Shown here piece after piece: positions 23,581 through 40,936 of a stretch of 64,000 bases of DNA. The notes under the pieces were generated by a model. The model worked only from the letters and a program-made list of their open reading frames with translations, was not told where the DNA came from and made no database searches. A program made the translations under genes and the position numbers. Source of the stretch: Halorhabdus amylolytica (GTDB lineage: Archaea; Halobacteriota; Halobacteria; Halobacteriales; Haloarculaceae); contig NZ_SPQG01000009.1 of the NCBI RefSeq assembly GCF_004944975.1, forward strand, positions 1 to 64,000, written 5' to 3'. Position 1 is the first letter of the stretch, and the number at the start of each line of letters is the position of its first letter.

Positions 23581-24030
23581 TCAGACCCCACCAAGGACCC
23601 TTTCGAGTGCGTCGATCGCCCCGGGGATTCGATCCGCAACCGGTGGAGATAATCCCTCGCCCAACCCCGTCTCAACCGGCTGGATACCGACAACGCGGAC
23701 TGTCGGAGAGGTCTCCCTCAGCCGTTCGGCCATCGCGAGGAGTTCGAACGCGTCGGTCCCGTGACTCGCCCGCCGATCGCGGGTCCCGTCTGCGTCCGTC
23801 GGATCGAACACCACGACCTCGCCAGGGTCGCCGCCGAAATCGACGGCGTCGACGATCACGATGGCCTCGTAGTCCACGACGACGTGCACCAGGTCGAACC
23901 CCGCGTCCCCGAGGTCGAGGCAGTCAGCCCGGAGGTCACGGTCACGTAACCGCGCGACCAGCGCCGGGCCGACGCCGTCGTCACGACGGTAGGGATTCCC
24001 CAGTGCGACGACGGCCAGTTCGGCGGTCAT
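23581..24030 (-). CDS. Hydrogenase maturation protease
   Basis: 149 residues of the HyaD/HycI fold. The N terminus LAVVALGNPYRRDDGVG contains the GNP...DDG motif that binds nickel, and VDAVDFGGDPGEVVVF plus SHGTDAFELL carry the later Asp/His. It should clip the C-terminal peptide of the hydrogenase large subunit after nickel insertion. It starts 34 nt after the large-subunit stop on the same strand, and that subunit indeed keeps an 11-residue tail after its last metal ligand. Confidence 0.9.
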   Translation of the reverse strand: MTAELAVVALGNPYRRDDGVGPALVARLRDRDLRADCLDLGDAGFDLVHVVVDYEAIVIVDAVDFGGDPGEVVVFDPTDADGTRDRRASHGTDAFELLAMAERLRETSPTVRVVGIQPVETGLGEGLSPPVADRIPGAIDALERVLGGV

Positions 24031-24064
24031 GTTCGATCCGGTCACCTGTCGACGGAGCCTCCGA

Positions 24065-25384
24065 TCATCTCTCCTCACCGACGAACTCCACGTCGAGGTA
24101 GTGCGTCGAACAGGAGATACAGGGGTCGTAGGCCCGCACGAGCATTTCCAGGGTGTGTTCGATCTCCTCGGCGTCCCGATCGACGATCGTCGGCACCAAC
24201 GTTTCCATGTCGCGCTGGATGTTGCCGTGGTTCTGGTTGGTCGGAATGACGCAGTTGGCCGCGGTCACTTTGCCCGCCTCATCGTAGTCGTACTCGTGAA
24301 AGAGCACACCACGGGGTACCTCGATGGCACCGATTCCCGATCCGGCAGTCGGATCGATCTCGGGGACGCGATAGTCCGACTGGGGGGCGAGCCCGTCGGC
24401 AAGCAACGCCTCGATCAGCCGGACAGACTCGGCGAGCAGGTGGGCCACCTCGACGAGCTGGGCGACGTTGTTCAGATAGGGATTGTGGACAGGCGCGGCC
24501 AGGCCGAAGCGATCGGCAATCTCCGTCGCTCGTGGGGCAAGTTGCTCGGCGTTGTTGTTGAAGCGAGCGAGCGCGCCGACCATGTACGAATCGCGTTCGT
24601 GACGGGCGAACTTGGCCGTCGAATGGTCGACGACATACTCGTTGGCGACGTCGCGGTAGTCGGAAACGGGGATCTCGCCCACGTCCGAGGAATAGATGGA
24701 TCCTTCGGCGAAGGCGTACTCCTCGGGATGGGTGAGCGAGATGTACTCGGTCTCCCGTTCGAAGTCGGGGAGTTCGTCGGCCAGTACCGCGAGCAGGTCG
24801 GCGAGTTCCGCGACCGCGTCCCAGCTGTTGAGGAGTCGATCGAGCAGTTCTTCGAGTTTGCTCTCCTCGGGAAGCTGGGAGAACCCACCGGCGAGCAACC
24901 GCTGGGCGTGAACTGACCGACCGGTGACGACTTCGGTCAGCTCGTTGCCCAGTCGGTGGAGGTCGATCACGGTCTCCAGTTCGTCAGGGTGGGTATCGGC
25001 CAGCGGCAGGACGGACTTCTCGCCGACCAGATCCGGCAGCGCGAGGTAGCCCAGATGCAAGACGTGACTCTGGAGGGTCTCGCCGTAGAGCGCGAGCTTA
25101 CGCAGTCGCCGATCCTGCTCGGAGACAGCGACTCCCATGGCGGCCTCGGTCGCCTGCAACGACGCGATGGTGTGGCTGACCGAACAGATGGCACAGATCC
25201 GCGAGGTGACGTGGTGGGCTTCCCTGAACGACCGGCCGACGAGCATCGACTCGAAGTACCGTGGTGACTCGACGACGTGCCATTCACAGGTCTCTACGTC
25301 GCCCTCGGCGACGTTGACGACGATCGAGCCGTGCCCCTCGACGCGCGTGACGAGGTCTCCCTCGACGTCGACGGTGTGGCTCAT
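24065..25384 (-). CDS. [NiFe] hydrogenase large (catalytic) subunit, group 3 cytosolic type
   Basis: 439 residues. The NiFe(CN)2CO site ligands are present: Cys64 and Cys67 in RICAICSVSH near the N terminus, and Cys422 and Cys425 in DPCISCSTH with His428, near the C terminus. TRVEGHGSIVV is the conserved Mg-site Glu region. Overall length (~440) and the operon of four subunits fit group 3b NADP-linked (sulf)hydrogenases. Eleven residues follow His428, the expected protease-removed tail. The ATG at 25384 overlaps the small-subunit stop by 4 nt. A longer upstream frame is a shadow. Confidence 0.93.
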   Translation of the reverse strand: MSHTVDVEGDLVTRVEGHGSIVVNVAEGDVETCEWHVVESPRYFESMLVGRSFREAHHVTSRICAICSVSHTIASLQATEAAMGVAVSEQDRRLRKLALYGETLQSHVLHLGYLALPDLVGEKSVLPLADTHPDELETVIDLHRLGNELTEVVTGRSVHAQRLLAGGFSQLPEESKLEELLDRLLNSWDAVAELADLLAVLADELPDFERETEYISLTHPEEYAFAEGSIYSSDVGEIPVSDYRDVANEYVVDHSTAKFARHERDSYMVGALARFNNNAEQLAPRATEIADRFGLAAPVHNPYLNNVAQLVEVAHLLAESVRLIEALLADGLAPQSDYRVPEIDPTAGSGIGAIEVPRGVLFHEYDYDEAGKVTAANCVIPTNQNHGNIQRDMETLVPTIVDRDAEEIEHTLEMLVRAYDPCISCSTHYLDVEFVGEER

Positions 25385-26181
25385 CGGTTCCCTCCATCGG
25401 CGACGGCTCGTGAATCCCGTTGCCAGTTCCAGTACAGTTGATACTCCTCGATGATTTCCTCGGTAGTCAGTCCGTGGTCCTCGAGAACGTCCGTGTAGGC
25501 GCCCTCGTTGGGATCGTCGACCATGCCCCGACAGCCCCAGCAGTGGGTGCCCGCCGAGACACAGGTCGCCGAACAGCCGCCGCGCGTGATCGGTCCGAGA
25601 CAAGTCTCGCCGCGCTCGAACGCACAGGTGTTCTCCTCGAACTTGCACTCTACGCAGACGGGATAGTTGGGGATCGACGGCTCGGCACCGTTGACCAGCG
25701 CCGTGACGGCCCCGACGAACTCCTCGCGATCGATCGGACAACCCGGGATCTCGTAGTCGACCTCGATGACGTCGTCGATCGGCCGGGCGATCGGATAGGA
25801 CGTGATCGAATCGCTATCCTCGCCGTACACCCGCTCCTTGACGGTCTCGAATTCCTGGTCGTTTCGTAGGGCGTTGATCCCCGCGAAGGCGGCACACGAG
25901 CCAAGCGCGACCACGATGTCGGCGTTCTCGCGGATCCGGGTCAGCCGGCGTTCGTCGTGGGCCGTCGCGACGCCGCCCTCGACGAAGGCGATCTCGTAGT
26001 CGTCTCCGTGCTCGGTCATCGCCTCGCGGAAACTGACGACCTCGACGACCTCGACGAGGTCGAGCAGACGGTCTTCGAGATTGATCACCTGCAACTGATC
26101 GCCCTCACACCCCGTGAAGTCGAAGAAGGCGACGCGCGGTCGTCGCCCGTCGCTGACCGATGGCGCGCTCGCGTCGCTCAT
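25381..26181 (-). CDS. [NiFe] hydrogenase small (electron-transfer) subunit
   Basis: 266 residues, no Tat signal, so cytosolic. Proximal-cluster positions are Cys25 in FTGCEGDQLQ, Cys96 in ALGSCAAFA and Cys148 in EIPGCPID. The fourth position, normally Cys three residues after Cys25, is Asp28. Eight further cysteines (176, 179, 186, 194, 203, 207, 214, 217) in PVCVECK, CLGPITRGGC and CWGCRG would hold two more 4Fe-4S clusters as in group 3b enzymes. It overlaps both neighbouring subunit genes by 4 nt. Confidence 0.92.
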   Translation of the reverse strand: MSDASAPSVSDGRRPRVAFFDFTGCEGDQLQVINLEDRLLDLVEVVEVVSFREAMTEHGDDYEIAFVEGGVATAHDERRLTRIRENADIVVALGSCAAFAGINALRNDQEFETVKERVYGEDSDSITSYPIARPIDDVIEVDYEIPGCPIDREEFVGAVTALVNGAEPSIPNYPVCVECKFEENTCAFERGETCLGPITRGGCSATCVSAGTHCWGCRGMVDDPNEGAYTDVLEDHGLTTEEIIEEYQLYWNWQRDSRAVADGGNR

Positions 26182-27038
26182 ACTTCGGCCTCCTCCTTGT
26201 CCCGGACGGTCGGATAGTGAAACACCGGGCCGTCCAGACAGACGTACAGTTCGTTGAGCTGGCAATGCCCACAGAGCCCGCGGCCACAGTGCATGTTCCG
26301 TTCCAGGGAGAGGTAGATGCGGTCGTCGGCCAGCCCTTTCTCCCGCAAGGCCTTGATGACGAACCGATACATCACGGGCGGACCACAGACGAGTGCGACT
26401 GTCGTCTCGGGATCGAATTCGAGGGGCGGAATGAGCGACGTGATGACGCCCGTATCGCCGTCCCACTCCTGGCTGTCCGGAACCTCGTCGACCGTCTCGC
26501 GGTAGTCCATCACGTCCGAATCAGCCCACTCGTCGAGTTCACCCGGGAACAGTTGCTCTGCGGGTTCGGTACAGCCGTACAGCGTCGTCAGGTCGCCGAA
26601 CTCCGCGGGCCGGTCCAGAGCGTAGTTGATCACCGACCGGAGCGGTGCGAGGCCGATCCCGCCGGCGATAAAGAGCAGATCCTGACCGGCGATCGCGTCG
26701 ATGTCGAAGCCCTGACCGTACGGGCCACGGATGCCGACCACGTCGCCGGCTTCTAGATCGTGGATGGCGTTGGTCACGTTGCCAACCGCGCGGATGCACA
26801 ACTCGAAGGGACCTTCTTTGGTCGGCGAGGAGGCGATCGAGAACGGTGCCTCGCCGACGCCGGGGACGAATAGCTGGACGAACTGGCCGGGGTCGTGATC
26901 GAGACTGACGCCGTCGGGCAGGTCGATGACGAACAGCTTGTCGTCGTCGGTGTGGCGATCGATCCAGACGATCTGTCCTTCGATCGGCTGGTACTCGCTT
27001 TCGCCGTGTTCGAAGTGCGTCCGGGCAGCGCTACGCAT
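26178..27038 (-). CDS. Hydrogenase FAD/NAD(P)-binding diaphorase subunit
   Basis: 286 residues of the ferredoxin-reductase-like fold (gamma subunit of sulfhydrogenase). GEAPFSIASSPTK is the FAD-binding segment, GPYGQGFDI and AGGIGLAPLRS the nucleotide site, and ALVCGPPVMYRF the C-terminal NAD(P)H motif. A 2Fe-2S cluster is expected in MHCGRGLCGHCQLNELYVCL (four Cys). It passes electrons between NAD(P)H and the iron-sulfur beta subunit. The start overlaps the beta-subunit stop by 8 nt. Confidence 0.9.
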   Translation of the reverse strand: MRSAARTHFEHGESEYQPIEGQIVWIDRHTDDDKLFVIDLPDGVSLDHDPGQFVQLFVPGVGEAPFSIASSPTKEGPFELCIRAVGNVTNAIHDLEAGDVVGIRGPYGQGFDIDAIAGQDLLFIAGGIGLAPLRSVINYALDRPAEFGDLTTLYGCTEPAEQLFPGELDEWADSDVMDYRETVDEVPDSQEWDGDTGVITSLIPPLEFDPETTVALVCGPPVMYRFVIKALREKGLADDRIYLSLERNMHCGRGLCGHCQLNELYVCLDGPVFHYPTVRDKEEAEV

Positions 27039-28068
27039 GCTGGGCCTCCCGAAGTTCGTTGTAGACCTCACAGGGATCGGCTACGTCGGCGACGCAATGT
27101 CGGGTACACCGACCACAGCCGACGCAGGCGACGTCGCCGTACCGTTCGTAGATGTACCAGCCCTTGCGCATGAACCGGTGACGGTGCCGTTGAGCGACCT
27201 CCTCACGGAAGTTCTCGCCCTGGGCGACCGTCGCGAAGTCCTCCAGCAGACAGCCGTCCCACCGGCGTTCCTGGCGACCGCTGTCGCCGTCGAGATCCCG
27301 GACCATGTCCACGCTGAAACAGAAGCAGGTCGGACAGACCACGTTGCAGGTGCCACAGGAGAGACACTGCTCGGCGTAATCTTCCCAGAAGTCCATGTCG
27401 TCGTAACTGGCTTCGAGCAACGTCGGGAGTTCCGCCGGCGGGAACGCCAGTTCCCGGTCGAACCCGTCTTTGAGGTCCGCCTCGATCTCTGCGACACGTT
27501 CGATCTCCTCGGCAGTCGCGTTCCGCGTTTTCGTCGACTCCAGCAACCGGTCGCCCTCGAAGGTTCCGATGTCGACGGCGAAGGTATCGCCGAGATCAGT
27601 TACCATGAGGTCGTACCCCGAGTCGACCGTGGCCGTCCCCATGCTCGCGGCGAAGCAGTTGTCGGCCACGTCCTGCATGGTCACCCCGATCAACACGGAG
27701 TTCTCACGCTTGCGGCGGTACGGTTCGTCCTGTAAGGTGTCGATGAATATCTTGTCGAGATGCTCGATCGCCGCCAGGTCGTAGGGGTGGACGCCGACGA
27801 CGATGTGTCCCGTCGGATCAGCCTCCGCCCGCATCTCGTACTCGTCGTCCGTCCGGTCGTAGGTCAGCAGCGTCTCCCGCTGTGGCATGACGTACTTCTT
27901 CGGAGAGAGCGCTGTCAGGTCGTAGTCCAATGTGAGTTCGTCGGCCGATTCCAGATGATCGAAGACGTACTGTTCGCCGTCCTCCTGTACCCCGACCACG
28001 TCCCGCGGATCGGACGCGATCAACTCCTCGATCAGGGCATCGAGGTCCGATCGATCGATGACTTTCAT
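27031..28068 (-). CDS. Hydrogenase iron-sulfur (beta) subunit
   Basis: 345 residues. The last ~110 residues carry two 4Fe-4S motifs, CLSCGTCNVVCPTC and CVGCGRCTRHC with a trailing DPC. The N-terminal ~220 residues match the sulfhydrogenase beta-type domain, with GHIVVGVHPYDLAAIEHLD and VDSGYDLMVTDLGD visible. It links the diaphorase to the small subunit. It is the first gene of the five-gene operon (beta, gamma, small, large, protease). The ATG at 28066-28068 faces pdaD across a 198-bp gap. Confidence 0.9.
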   Translation of the reverse strand: MKVIDRSDLDALIEELIASDPRDVVGVQEDGEQYVFDHLESADELTLDYDLTALSPKKYVMPQRETLLTYDRTDDEYEMRAEADPTGHIVVGVHPYDLAAIEHLDKIFIDTLQDEPYRRKRENSVLIGVTMQDVADNCFAASMGTATVDSGYDLMVTDLGDTFAVDIGTFEGDRLLESTKTRNATAEEIERVAEIEADLKDGFDRELAFPPAELPTLLEASYDDMDFWEDYAEQCLSCGTCNVVCPTCFCFSVDMVRDLDGDSGRQERRWDGCLLEDFATVAQGENFREEVAQRHRHRFMRKGWYIYERYGDVACVGCGRCTRHCVADVADPCEVYNELREAQHA

Positions 28069-28175: not shown

Positions 28176-28266
28176 CTATCATTATAATGTTTGTTACTCG
28201 AAGATTGTGGCCGGCCGTCGATCCCGAACGAAGCACTTTACCCTCTTCTCGCCCGATTTCCCGGTG

Positions 28267-36752: not shown

Positions 36753-38768
36753 CTACGTGGTCGGGATCCAGACCGTCATGGCCCCGTCCTCGCGGTTGTC
36801 CCAGGCGAAGTAGGGGATCGCGACGATCTCCGTTTCCGTCCGATTGACTCTATCGACCGAGCGGTACAACGAGTCCGTCCACGTGTCCAGGTCAGAAGCA
36901 GTCCCCTCGCCCCGGAGAACGGTCGTCCCGCCGAGGAGGTCCGGGTCGTGCTCGGGGTCGGGATCGAAGTCGTCGGGGTCCGACACCGCGAGTGTCTCGA
37001 CCGGAACGGAGTGGTCGGCGTCCTCGACGCAGTAGACGAGCGGACCCCGCCTGACGGCGACGCGGCCGGCGTCGTCCCTGACGCGCGGGTCCGCCGCGAG
37101 CACCTCGACCGGTTGGGAGAACGAGAGCGCGACCTCGTCGCCTGCTTCCCACGTTCGTTCGACCGAGAGGTAGTCGTCGCTCGCGGACGGGACATTCGTT
37201 TCGGCGATCGTCTCACCGTTGACGGTGGCCTCGACGTTCGTGACCCACTCCGGGATTCGGACGCGGAGTTCGAATGCCCCAGGGTCGTCGTGAGTGAACT
37301 TGATGTTGGTCTCGCCCTCCCAGGGCATCGCGGTCGACTGCGTTAGCGCCACGGTATCCTCACCCAGTTCCGTCTCGATCGAACTCCCGACGAACTGGTT
37401 CACGTACAGCGTCTCGCCATCGGTTCCCCGCGCGTAGATGTACCGTTCGAGCGAGGCGAGCAACCGTGCGGCGTTCGGCGGACAGCACGCCACGTAGAAC
37501 CACTCCTTGCGGTGGTGATCGCCCGTCGTCTCCAGCGGATTGACGTAGAAAAAGCGGTCGCCGCTGACGGAAACCCCTGCCAGAAAGCCGTTGTACAGCG
37601 TCCGTTCTATCAGGTCGGCGTAGTCCCTCTCGGCGGTCAACTCGAACAGGCGGTGGTTCCAGAAGATGCTGCCGATGGCGGCGCACGTTTCGGCGTAAGC
37701 GGTGTCGTTGGGGAGGTCGTAGTCCTCAGTGAACCCCTCGTGTTCGTGTTCGGAACCGATGCCACCGGTCACGTACATCCGTTTCGTCGTCATGTTCTCC
37801 CAGAGCCGTTGGATCGCCGTCCACAGCTCCTCGTCGTCGCGTTCCTGCAGGAGCGACGTCACGCCCGTATAGAAGTACATCGCCCGGACGGCGTGTCCCT
37901 CGACGGTCTCCTGCTCACGGAGGGGGAGGTGGTCCTGGGCGTAGCTGCCGTCGTACTCGCCGTCCCTGAGGAAATGATTACGGGCCCCCTCGGCGGCGGT
38001 CTGACCGTGGTGAACGAAGTCGGCACCGGCGATCTCCTCGACGTTCGCGAGTTCGTCCGCAAGCGGCGACGGGTCCTGTCCGCGCGCGTCGACGAAGTAC
38101 TCGGCGAGATCGAGATACCGCTCCTCGCCGGTGACGCGATACAGTTTGACCAGCGCGAGTTCGATCTCTTCGTGACCTGGTACGCCGTTTTGCCCGTCGG
38201 GTCCGAACTGCCGGTCGATGTGGTCGGCGAACGCCCTCGCGACGTCGAGCAAGCCCTCGGACCCGGTAGCGCGGTAGTGGGCAACAGCGGCCTCGATCAG
38301 GTGACCGGCGCAGTACAGTTCGTGCATCACCGCGAGGTTGGTCCACTTCATCTCCGGCTCGACGAGCTGGAAGTAGGTGTGGAGGTAGCCGTCGTCCTCC
38401 TGGGCGTCGGCTAGCAGCTCGATCACCTCGTTGACGCGCTCGCGAAGGTCCGGTTCCTCGCCCGTCGCGAGGACGTAACTCGCCGCTTCGAGCCACTTGT
38501 AGGCGTCCGAGTCGATGAACATCGGTCCCTCGAAAGCGCCGTCCTCTCCGGACGAATCGCCTTCCTGGCCCCCGCTCGTCTCGTCCGCTGTGGCACCCCT
38601 GGCGACGCGCCGGAAGTTCGCCAGACAGCCGTTCGCCTCCAGCTGATCGTACTGGTGGGCGATCGTCACCTCGCGGTTGGTCTCGACGCGCGGAGTCCAG
38701 AAGTCGTCGTCGAGTTCAACGTCCGAGATCGGCACTGACTCCGCTGTCGCTCTGGGTCCTGCGGGCAT
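36753..38768 (-). CDS. GH127 family glycoside hydrolase (beta-L-arabinofuranosidase-like)
   Basis: 671 residues. The zinc-site residues known from Bifidobacterium HypBA1 (Glu, Cys, and a Cys-Cys pair) match Glu360 and Cys362 in YAETCAAIG and Cys428-Cys429 in VACCPPNAAR, one of which would be the nucleophile. The N-terminal (alpha/alpha)6 domain includes DAQEDDGYLHTYFQLVEPEM and the C-terminal part is beta-rich. No signal peptide, so it acts on imported oligosaccharides. A Gly/Ser/Glu insertion at residues ~60-82 is missing from its neighbour. It lies downstream of a paralog. Confidence 0.9.
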   Translation of the reverse strand: MPAGPRATAESVPISDVELDDDFWTPRVETNREVTIAHQYDQLEANGCLANFRRVARGATADETSGGQEGDSSGEDGAFEGPMFIDSDAYKWLEAASYVLATGEEPDLRERVNEVIELLADAQEDDGYLHTYFQLVEPEMKWTNLAVMHELYCAGHLIEAAVAHYRATGSEGLLDVARAFADHIDRQFGPDGQNGVPGHEEIELALVKLYRVTGEERYLDLAEYFVDARGQDPSPLADELANVEEIAGADFVHHGQTAAEGARNHFLRDGEYDGSYAQDHLPLREQETVEGHAVRAMYFYTGVTSLLQERDDEELWTAIQRLWENMTTKRMYVTGGIGSEHEHEGFTEDYDLPNDTAYAETCAAIGSIFWNHRLFELTAERDYADLIERTLYNGFLAGVSVSGDRFFYVNPLETTGDHHRKEWFYVACCPPNAARLLASLERYIYARGTDGETLYVNQFVGSSIETELGEDTVALTQSTAMPWEGETNIKFTHDDPGAFELRVRIPEWVTNVEATVNGETIAETNVPSASDDYLSVERTWEAGDEVALSFSQPVEVLAADPRVRDDAGRVAVRRGPLVYCVEDADHSVPVETLAVSDPDDFDPDPEHDPDLLGGTTVLRGEGTASDLDTWTDSLYRSVDRVNRTETEIVAIPYFAWDNREDGAMTVWIPTT

Positions 38769-38842
38769 ACGTCCCTCATAAGCGAGCGCGACGAACTAAT
38801 AGATACTGCGTCTGCGACTCCGGCCCCATCGACGATCGGATG

Positions 38843-38961
38843 CGATCACTTCGATCCCGCGTTGGCGACGAGGGACGATCACTCCGATCTGGTGTCGGCG
38901 ACGAGGGACGATCACTCCGATCTGGTGTCGGCGACGAGGGACGATCACTTCGGTCCCGCCG
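38843..38961. repeat. 33-bp tandem repeat running from the end of the second GH127 gene
   Basis: Units begin at 38843, 38876, 38909 and 38942 (the last partial), each starting CGATCACT and ending GGCGACGAGGGA. Units 2 and 3 are identical; unit 1 differs at a few positions. The last, partial unit covers the final codons and stop (38945) of the upstream GH127 gene, so the array extends that 3' end into the 176-bp spacer. Confidence 0.9.
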
Positions 38962-40936
38962 ACCGCCGGGACGCTGCCTCGACCCAGACGCGCATCTCGT
39001 CCTCGCCGCGGTTGGCCCAGCCGTAGTAGGGGATCGCACGGACGGTCACAGGTTCCGTGTCAACCTGTGAATCCGGCTTGTAGAGCTCTTCGTCGGTCCA
39101 GGACGACTCCTCGGGGACGAGGGCGTCGAGATCCAGCGTCGTGACGCCGTCGAGCAGTTCGTCGTCGTGTTCGATGCCGACGTCCCCGTCGGGATCGAGC
39201 TCGACCTGGTGGAGCGGCCGCGGACTGTCAGTCCCTTCCAGACAGTAGACGATCGGGCCCCGCTGGACGGCGACGCGGCCGGCGTCGCTTTCGAGTGCTG
39301 GATGCCCCCGGAGGAACTGGACCGGGAACCCGGCCCCGAACCTGACTTCGTCGCCAGGCGCCCACTCACGCTCGATCCGACAGAACTCGCCGGGGGACGC
39401 TTCGACGGACTCCTCGGTACGCTCGCCGTCCGAAGCCGCGACAGTCACGGAAACATCGCTACACCACGACGGGATCCGGAGTGCGAGTTCGAACGTCAAC
39501 GGTTCCTCGGGCGTCACTGAAATCGTCGTCTCGGCGTCCCAGGGGAACGCCGTCTCCTGGTCGACGGTCACGGTCGTCTCCCCGAGTTCGACCGTCGCCT
39601 CGCTGCCGATGTGGTGGTTGACGTACAGCGAGGCGTTGCCGACTGCGTAGACGTGACTCCCAAGCGACCCGACGAGTCGCGGCACGTTCGTCGGACAGCA
39701 GGCGGTCTCGAACCAGCCCTGTCGTTGGGCCGCGAACCGGTTGGGATCCTCGTCATGGAGCGGGTGACCGTCAGTCCCCATCTCGTGTGGGTTGGCATAG
39801 AAGAACCGTCGCCCGTCGAGCGAGAGTCCCGCCAGAAACGCGTTGTAAAGCGTCCGGGACTGCAGGTCGCCGTAGCGCGCCTCGCCGGTCAACTGAAGCA
39901 GACGCTGGTTCCAGAGGATGCTCCCGAGGGCGGCACACGTCTCAGCATACGAGGTGTCGTTGGGGAGGTCGTAGTCCTCGGTGAACCGCTCGCCGACGTG
40001 CGAGGAGCCGACGGCGCCGGTGACGTACATCCGCTTCGTCGTCATGTTTTCCCACAATCCTTCGAGGACATCGAGCAGTTCCTCGTCGTCGGTTTCGAGC
40101 GCCACGTCGGCTGCCCCAGTGTAGAAGTACATCGCCCGGACGGCGTGTCCCTCGACGGTCTCCTGCTCGCGGAGGGGTGCGTGGTCTTGCAAGTAGCGTC
40201 CGTCGTACTCGCCGTCATCGACGACGTGGTCGGACGGTTCACCCGCGATCTCCTCGGGATGGGAGACCTCGTAGGCCAGCCGCGAGTCCGCGGCGCCTCG
40301 CCGGTCGACGAAGTACTGCGCGAGGTCGAGATATCGCTCCTCGCCGGTGACGCGATACAGTTTGACCAGCGCGAGTTCGATCTCCTCGTGACCCGGCACA
40401 CCGTCTTTGCCGTCAGGTCCGAACCGCCGGTCGATGTGGTCGGCGAACGCCGTCGCGACATCGAGCAACCGCTCCTCGCCCGTCGCTTCCTCGTGGGCGA
40501 TCGCCGCCTCGAAGAGGTGACCGGCGCAGTACAGCTCGTGGAGTACGTGAAGGTTGGTCCACTTCATCTCCGGCTCGACGAGCTGGAAGTAGGTGTTGAG
40601 ATAGCCGTCGTCCTCCTGGGCGTCGACTAGCAGGTCGACCACTTCGTCGATGCGCTTGCGCAGTTCCGAATCCTCGTCCGTCGCGAGGAAGTAACAGGCC
40701 CCCTCGAGCCACTTGTAGACGTCCGAGTCGTTGTAGAACCGGCCCTGGAACTCCCCGTCGACGTGGCCAGCAGCGACGCGGAAGTTCTCGATGCGGCCTG
40801 ACTCGACCAGTCGGTCGTACACGAAGTCGATCGTCGTCTCCCGGACCGTCTCGATCCGGGGGGTCCAGAACTCGTCATCGATCGTCGCGTCCTCGACACT
40901 CACTGGTTCGGGATACGCGTGGACGTTCGACGTCAT
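38945..40936 (-). CDS. GH127 family glycoside hydrolase, second copy
   Basis: 663 residues, clearly paralogous to the 36753-38768 protein along the whole length. The catalytic metal set is intact: Glu332 and Cys334 in YAETCAALG, Cys413-Cys414 in ETACCPTNVPR. It has a longer loop before the Cys pair (HPLHDEDPNRFAAQRQ) and lacks the Gly/Ser insertion, so specificity may differ. No signal peptide. It is the promoter-proximal member of the pair. Its 3' end is repeated in the spacer. Confidence 0.9.
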   Translation of the reverse strand: MTSNVHAYPEPVSVEDATIDDEFWTPRIETVRETTIDFVYDRLVESGRIENFRVAAGHVDGEFQGRFYNDSDVYKWLEGACYFLATDEDSELRKRIDEVVDLLVDAQEDDGYLNTYFQLVEPEMKWTNLHVLHELYCAGHLFEAAIAHEEATGEERLLDVATAFADHIDRRFGPDGKDGVPGHEEIELALVKLYRVTGEERYLDLAQYFVDRRGAADSRLAYEVSHPEEIAGEPSDHVVDDGEYDGRYLQDHAPLREQETVEGHAVRAMYFYTGAADVALETDDEELLDVLEGLWENMTTKRMYVTGAVGSSHVGERFTEDYDLPNDTSYAETCAALGSILWNQRLLQLTGEARYGDLQSRTLYNAFLAGLSLDGRRFFYANPHEMGTDGHPLHDEDPNRFAAQRQGWFETACCPTNVPRLVGSLGSHVYAVGNASLYVNHHIGSEATVELGETTVTVDQETAFPWDAETTISVTPEEPLTFELALRIPSWCSDVSVTVAASDGERTEESVEASPGEFCRIEREWAPGDEVRFGAGFPVQFLRGHPALESDAGRVAVQRGPIVYCLEGTDSPRPLHQVELDPDGDVGIEHDDELLDGVTTLDLDALVPEESSWTDEELYKPDSQVDTEPVTVRAIPYYGWANRGEDEMRVWVEAASRRSAGPK

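What the first reader, a model, noticed from the sequence alone, without database searches (positions are those of the whole stretch)
23581..28068. Complete group-3b-type [NiFe] hydrogenase operon in a haloarchaeon
Five same-strand genes encode beta (two 4Fe-4S motifs), gamma (FAD/NAD(P) plus 2Fe-2S), small, large and protease, the four subunits overlapping by 4-8 nt. The large subunit keeps all four NiFe cysteines. Most described haloarchaea are aerobes without hydrogenase, so this points to fermentative H2 turnover or sulfur/polysulfide reduction with NAD(P)H. The nearby sugar hydrolases fit disposal of reductant from sugar breakdown. No hyp maturation genes are in the window.
Basis: partly seen in the sequence, partly recalled or inferred. 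Interest (0 to 1): 0.75.

Follow-up and report, generated by a model that had tools for sequence, protein, structure and literature searches.

The report
Cytosolic NADP-linked hydrogenase of fermenting haloarchaeon
A salt-loving, sugar-fermenting archaeon (Halorhabdus) carries a complete enzyme for exchanging electrons between NAD(P)H and hydrogen gas; it and its close relatives have an aspartate where well-studied versions have a cysteine holding the iron-sulfur cluster next to the active site.

Summary
Window 23581-28068 (minus strand) encodes beta, gamma, small and large subunits and a maturation protease of a cytosolic [NiFe] hydrogenase. All four subunits match Pyrococcus furiosus sulfhydrogenase I best among solved structures. 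The genome is a Halorhabdus. The enzyme occurs in all 7 Halorhabdus and 4 of 6 Halapricum genomes searched, but in only 12 of 391 sampled Halobacteria. The same genome carries a second [NiFe] hydrogenase, an electron-bifurcating NiFe-Bfu type already reported for Halorhabdus. The unexpected detail is in the small subunit: one of the four proximal [4Fe-4S] cysteines is aspartate (TGCEGD). This holds in all 13 haloarchaeal copies and in a well-supported clade with Bathyarchaeota, hypersaline Thermoplasmata and a Bipolaricaulota sequence; the solved P. furiosus enzyme has cysteine. Best reading: a reversible NAD(P)H-linked 3b-type hydrogenase acting as a redox valve during sugar fermentation, in an aspartate-ligand subclade. 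Direction, cofactor and sulfur reduction are inferred, not shown.

The parts
27031..28068 (-). beta subunit, 345 aa, two 4Fe-4S motif regions
   Evidence: Fer4_22 E 4e-29; best PDB hit P. furiosus SHI beta 9nez_B, E 4.5e-50; cluster cysteines invariant in haloarchaeal relatives
26178..27038 (-). gamma subunit, 286 aa, FAD/NAD(P)-binding and 2Fe-2S domain
   Evidence: FAD_binding_6, NAD_binding_1, DHODB_Fe-S_bind; best PDB hit SHI gamma 9nez_C, E 5e-60
25381..26181 (-). small (delta) subunit, 266 aa, 11 Cys plus Asp as predicted ligands for three 4Fe-4S clusters; no Tat-type signal seen
   Evidence: Oxidored_q6; best PDB hits SHI delta 9e15/9nez, E 2e-46
26098..26100 (-). codon of the Asp that replaces the second Cys of the proximal-cluster CxxC (TGCEGDQLQ)
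   Evidence: alignment to SHI delta TSCYGCQLQ; invariant in 12 haloarchaeal copies and a 13th; 19 of 75 readable relatives also Asp
24065..25384 (-). large (alpha) catalytic subunit, 439 aa, NiFe site RICAIC...DPCISC, with C-terminal tail after the L2 motif
   Evidence: NiFeSe_Hases; SHI alpha 9nez_D E 2e-69; tree
23581..24030 (-). hydrogenase maturation protease (HycI/HyaD superfamily); alternative GTG start at 24078
   Evidence: PF01750 E 3e-19; TIGR00072 113 bits, over its cut-off
28181..28187 (-). TTATAAT, possible TATA box about 115 nt upstream of the beta start codon
   Evidence: read by eye from sequence; function not tested

Best explanation
A cytosolic, reversible [NiFe] hydrogenase of group 3b type. 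Shown by sequence: the NiFe site in the large subunit, three Fe-S cluster sites in the small subunit, Fe-S cluster motifs in beta, FAD/NAD(P) and 2Fe-2S domains in gamma, the protease, and complete hyp maturation genes in the genome. Inferred: electrons pass from NAD(P)H through the gamma FAD and the Fe-S relay to the NiFe site, making H2 when sugar fermentation over-reduces the NADP pool, and the flow reverses when H2 is present. It works beside a NiFe-Bfu enzyme that would use NADH plus reduced ferredoxin. It belongs to a 3b subclade whose proximal cluster is predicted to be held by three Cys and one Asp; the effect on potential or O2 response is unknown.
For: Domain and family matches. All four subunits have SHI as best solved relative; the only strong PDB match of beta is SHI beta. 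Gene order beta-gamma-small-large is kept in haloarchaea and in distant relatives. hypCDEAB at C21 about 202568-206420 and hypF at C21:214441-216684. Present in 7/7 Halorhabdus and 4/6 Halapricum genomes. G073 is H. utahensis by exact genome length, a glucose fermenter. Second hydrogenase: NiFe-Bfu of A. mobile (7t2r) is best hit for the HydB-like, HydA-like and large subunits, with conserved B2-cluster His/Cys and the GAxM flavin-site residues read from the alignment. Asp invariant in 13 haloarchaeal small subunits; Asp clade supported 100/98 in the large-subunit tree.
Against: Similarity to SHI is low and NCBIfam equivalog cut-offs are not reached (260 vs 700 bits for ShyA, 249 vs 880 for HydA). 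HydDB could not be run. In the tree the SHI and Mvh references sit on very long branches and the root is uncertain. No expression, activity or H2 data. Asp as a ligand is inferred from alignment only.
Confidence: 0.75

Rival explanations
1. The enzyme mainly oxidises H2 in vivo to supply NADPH, as an uptake rather than an evolving hydrogenase.
For: Group 3b enzymes are regarded as likely bidirectional (PMC9258230). The same genome has a NiFe-Bfu enzyme that could be the fermentative H2 producer.
Against: H. utahensis of the same genus ferments glucose (PMC3035240), which creates surplus reductant. The large-subunit search showed two hydrogenases in this genome, neither of group 1 uptake type; a third, partial match on C20 was not identified.
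Confidence: 0.3
2. Its main role is sulfur or polysulfide reduction with NADPH (sulfhydrogenase).
For: The homologous P. furiosus enzyme is called sulfhydrogenase. Gamma and beta also resemble AsrB and AsrA.
Against: No feature specific to sulfur reduction was found. The AsrA/AsrB resemblance is weaker than or similar to that to sulfhydrogenase subunits, and no AsrC was looked for. The genome has a tetrathionate-reductase-like molybdoenzyme that could serve sulfur compounds.
Confidence: 0.15
3. An inactive or decaying remnant, or a contaminant contig.
For: Only the Asp-for-Cys change in a cluster motif could suggest decay.
Against: All genes open; active-site and cluster cysteines invariant; Asp itself conserved across phyla. 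Operon present with shared flanking genes in other genomes of the genus, including H. utahensis. Full hyp set present.
Confidence: 0.03

Closest known systems
Pyrococcus furiosus soluble hydrogenase I / sulfhydrogenase I (PDB 9nez, 9nf0, 9e15, 9e1j), group 3b
   Same: Four subunits beta-gamma-delta-alpha, same domains, best solved match for every subunit.
   Different: Distant; below the NCBIfam equivalog cut-offs. SHI delta has CYGC at the proximal site, here CEGD. The haloarchaeal large subunit has a longer tail after DPCISCSTH.
NiFe-Bfu / NiFe-HydABCSL (Acetomicrobium mobile, PDB 7t2r; Halorhabdus versions in PMC9304861)
   Same: The second hydrogenase of this genome (contig C16) is of this type.
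   Different: The window operon lacks NuoE/F/G-like subunits and its large subunit is only about 34-37% identical to the genome's Bfu-type large subunit.
Haloarchaeal group 1 membrane hydrogenases HydABC (Halodesulfurarchaeum; natronoarchaea)
   Same: Also [NiFe] hydrogenases of haloarchaea (PMC5437934, PMC6176080).
   Different: Membrane-bound respiratory uptake type with cytochrome b; the window enzyme looks soluble, with NAD(P)-binding subunits.
F420-reducing hydrogenase FrhABG, group 3a
   Same: FrhG has Asp60 in place of one proximal-cluster Cys (PMC3591093). I did not check that it is the same one of the four positions.
   Different: No F420 subunit here; beta/gamma are NAD(P)-type.

Membership tests
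[NiFe] hydrogenase group 3b | NiFe large subunit with L1 and L2 CxxC motifs | tested here: met
   RICAIC and DPCISC, invariant cysteines in relatives
[NiFe] hydrogenase group 3b | Beta Fe-S and gamma FAD/NAD(P)-2Fe-2S subunits in the same operon | tested here: met
[NiFe] hydrogenase group 3b | Large subunit closer to 3b than to 3a/3c/3d references | tested here: met
   PDB scores: SHI 238 bits, Mvh (3c) 185, A. mobile Bfu 176, HoxH (3d) 140, Frh (3a) about 90. The tree alone is not decisive because of long reference branches
[NiFe] hydrogenase group 3b | HydDB classification | not testable with these tools
   web tool; a Methanoperedens sequence, from a genus whose enzymes HydDB calls 3b, lies in the same ingroup
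[NiFe] hydrogenase group 3b | NAD(P)-dependent H2 activity | not testable with these tools
   needs enzyme assay
NCBIfam sulfhydrogenase 1 or 2 equivalogs | Score above the curated cut-off | tested here: not met
   ShyA 260 vs 700, HydA 249 vs 880 bits; likewise the other subunits
Proximal cluster with four Cys ligands, as in SHI | CxxC plus two further Cys in the small subunit | tested here: not met
   C-E-G-D in place of C-x-x-C; the other Cys are kept
Functional [NiFe] hydrogenase system | hypA-F and a protease in the genome | tested here: met
   hypA is below its cut-offs (86 vs 146, 71 vs 88 bits) but lies in place within the hyp cluster

The most novel reading that the evidence does not exclude
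Aspartate is a real fourth ligand of the proximal [4Fe-4S] cluster in a whole subclade of group 3b hydrogenases (Halobacteria, Bathyarchaeota, hypersaline Thermoplasmata and others). It changes the cluster's potential or its response to oxygen, suiting a hydrogenase to organisms that switch between aerobic and fermentative life.
Probability: 0.3. Interest if true: 0.6.

Novelty: new variant of a known kind. Interest (0 to 1): 0.42.

Why it matters
It points to cytosolic NAD(P)H-linked H2 turnover, paired with electron bifurcation, in fermentative haloarchaea, a group usually seen as aerobic; Halorhabdus is culturable, so this can be tested directly. The conserved Asp gives a natural set of variants for asking what the proximal cluster ligand does in group 3 hydrogenases. 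In the papers I could search I found no description of either the haloarchaeal 3b enzyme or this Asp subclade, but subscription journals are largely missing from that library.

Tried and rejected
Contamination or remnant: rejected (same operon with shared flanking genes in other Halorhabdus genomes, full hyp set). Using the large-subunit tree alone to prove group 3b: set aside, because the SHI and Mvh reference branches are very long; the first tree also used wrong segments for several loci that carry a second hydrogenase and was redone. Joint transfer of 3b and NiFe-Bfu as one block, suggested by their divergent pairing in Halapricum and in a Bathyarchaeota contig: not pursued; HoxF-like identity to the Bathyarchaeota copy is only 49%, so it is neither shown nor excluded. 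Literature: no paper on haloarchaeal 3b enzymes found in the held library; the 2014 H. tiamatea proteogenomics paper was not available. Searches for Asp-ligated proximal clusters gave nothing useful beyond FrhG.

Full report
Observation. Window 23581-28068, minus strand, holds beta (28068-27031), gamma (27038-26178), small (26181-25381), large (25384-24065) and protease (24030-23581, alternative GTG start at 24078). Neighbouring subunit genes overlap by 8, 4 and 4 nt. Pfam and NCBIfam assign each gene to the expected family. All four subunits have Pyrococcus furiosus sulfhydrogenase I as best match among solved structures, and the beta subunit has no other strong match. No signal peptide of the Tat type is evident in the small subunit, so the enzyme is probably cytosolic (inference). 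A TTATAAT sequence lies about 115 nt upstream of the beta start.

Host. The window is on contig C26 of a 3.46 Mb genome, 99% complete. H. utahensis grows anaerobically on glucose by fermentation (PMC3035240).

Maturation. hypC, hypD, hypE, hypA and hypB are contiguous at C21 about 202568-206420, and hypF lies at C21:214441-216684.

Second hydrogenase. Contig C16 carries NuoE-, NuoF- and NuoG-like subunits, a small and a large subunit and a protease. The NuoF-like, NuoG-like and large subunits have the electron-bifurcating NiFe-HydABCSL of Acetomicrobium mobile (7t2r) as best solved match. In the alignment the residues named in PMC9304861 as Bfu hallmarks that I could place (A202 and M204 at the flavin site; B2-cluster His525, Cys531, Cys536) are conserved. 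PMC9304861 already reports NiFe-Bfu in Halorhabdus. So the organism has two predicted soluble group 3 type hydrogenases: one for NADH plus ferredoxin, one for NAD(P)H.

Distribution. The 3b large subunit at about 62% identity or more occurs in 7 of 7 Halorhabdus and 4 of 6 Halapricum genomes and in 12 of 391 sampled Halobacteria, the twelfth from another family. Flanking genes (PvlArgDC and the orf beside it) are shared among Halorhabdus. In G068, flanking DNA is mostly 75-93% identical to the window (conserved genes 86-93%) but gamma-small-large only about 71-82%, while the same three genes match H. tiamatea-size genome G072 at 88-91%; at protein level G068 is 89% identical in beta but 69-72% in gamma, small and large. 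In the tree the G068 large subunit groups with Halapricum (93/75). Homologous replacement of the catalytic genes in one lineage is the likely reason (inference).

Aspartate. The proximal-cluster motif CxxC of the small subunit reads C-E-G-D here, where SHI has C-Y-G-C. The other three proximal-type positions and the eight cysteines of the remaining two clusters are all Cys and invariant in 12 haloarchaeal copies (positions); a 13th copy also has Asp. The genome's own Bfu small subunit has the usual Cys. Among 75 readable relatives from a named-genome scan, 19 have Asp. In a large-subunit tree, 28 of the 29 Asp rows form one clade (100/98), with haloarchaea monophyletic inside it (100/100), beside hypersaline Thermoplasmata, a Bipolaricaulota contig and Bathyarchaeota; one further Asp row (L073) stands apart. 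The scan returned only the nearest relatives, so the true share of Asp among 3b enzymes is unknown. For L066, L067 and L070 the small subunit scored lies about 5 kb upstream of the large subunit, not adjacent. An Asp replacing one proximal-cluster Cys is documented in FrhG, group 3a (PMC3591093), so the chemistry has precedent. I have no structure of the Asp type.

Mechanism. Shown by sequence: all parts of an electron path from NAD(P)H (gamma FAD) through Fe-S clusters to a NiFe site, plus complete maturation. Inferred: a redox valve in sugar fermentation, making H2 from NAD(P)H or recovering reductant from H2; co-operation with NiFe-Bfu. Not shown: cofactor preference, direction, sulfur reduction, expression.

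Verdict. What is new to me is the Asp subclade. Novelty: variant of a known kind. Interest moderate.

Noticed in passing
G000 contig C16:13896-20735 (L006/L007): Second [NiFe] hydrogenase, electron-bifurcating NiFe-Bfu type, with its own protease and a NuoE-like subunit; already noted for Halorhabdus in PMC9304861.
   Followed up: yes
L046 (G068) versus window 23581-28068: Mosaic operon: flanks and beta are close to the window, gamma-small-large much less so; suggests in-place replacement of the catalytic genes between haloarchaeal lineages.
   Followed up: partly
L047, L048, L049 (Halapricum); L058 (Bathyarchaeota): The 3b operon and the NiFe-Bfu operon stand divergently about 1 kb apart, in both haloarchaea and a Bathyarchaeota contig, whereas in the Halorhabdus genomes they are far apart.
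   Followed up: partly
L066, L067, L070 (hypersaline Thermoplasmata/Nealsonbacteria bins), L082, L085, L088, L097 (Balneolales): A 3b-like large subunit and a small subunit about 5 kb upstream enclose a NuoF/HydB-like gene, without beta/gamma genes detected: possibly a 3b catalytic core joined to a Bfu-type module.
   Followed up: no
L045/L051 (Halapricum hydrolyticum): Two distinct 3b operons in one genome, one on a 5.3 kb contig.
   Followed up: no
window 36756-40936: Two adjacent GH127 beta-L-arabinofuranosidase genes.
   Followed up: partly
G000 C20:396068-397273 (L139): Tetrathionate-reductase-like molybdoenzyme match, a candidate for sulfur-compound reduction.
   Followed up: partly
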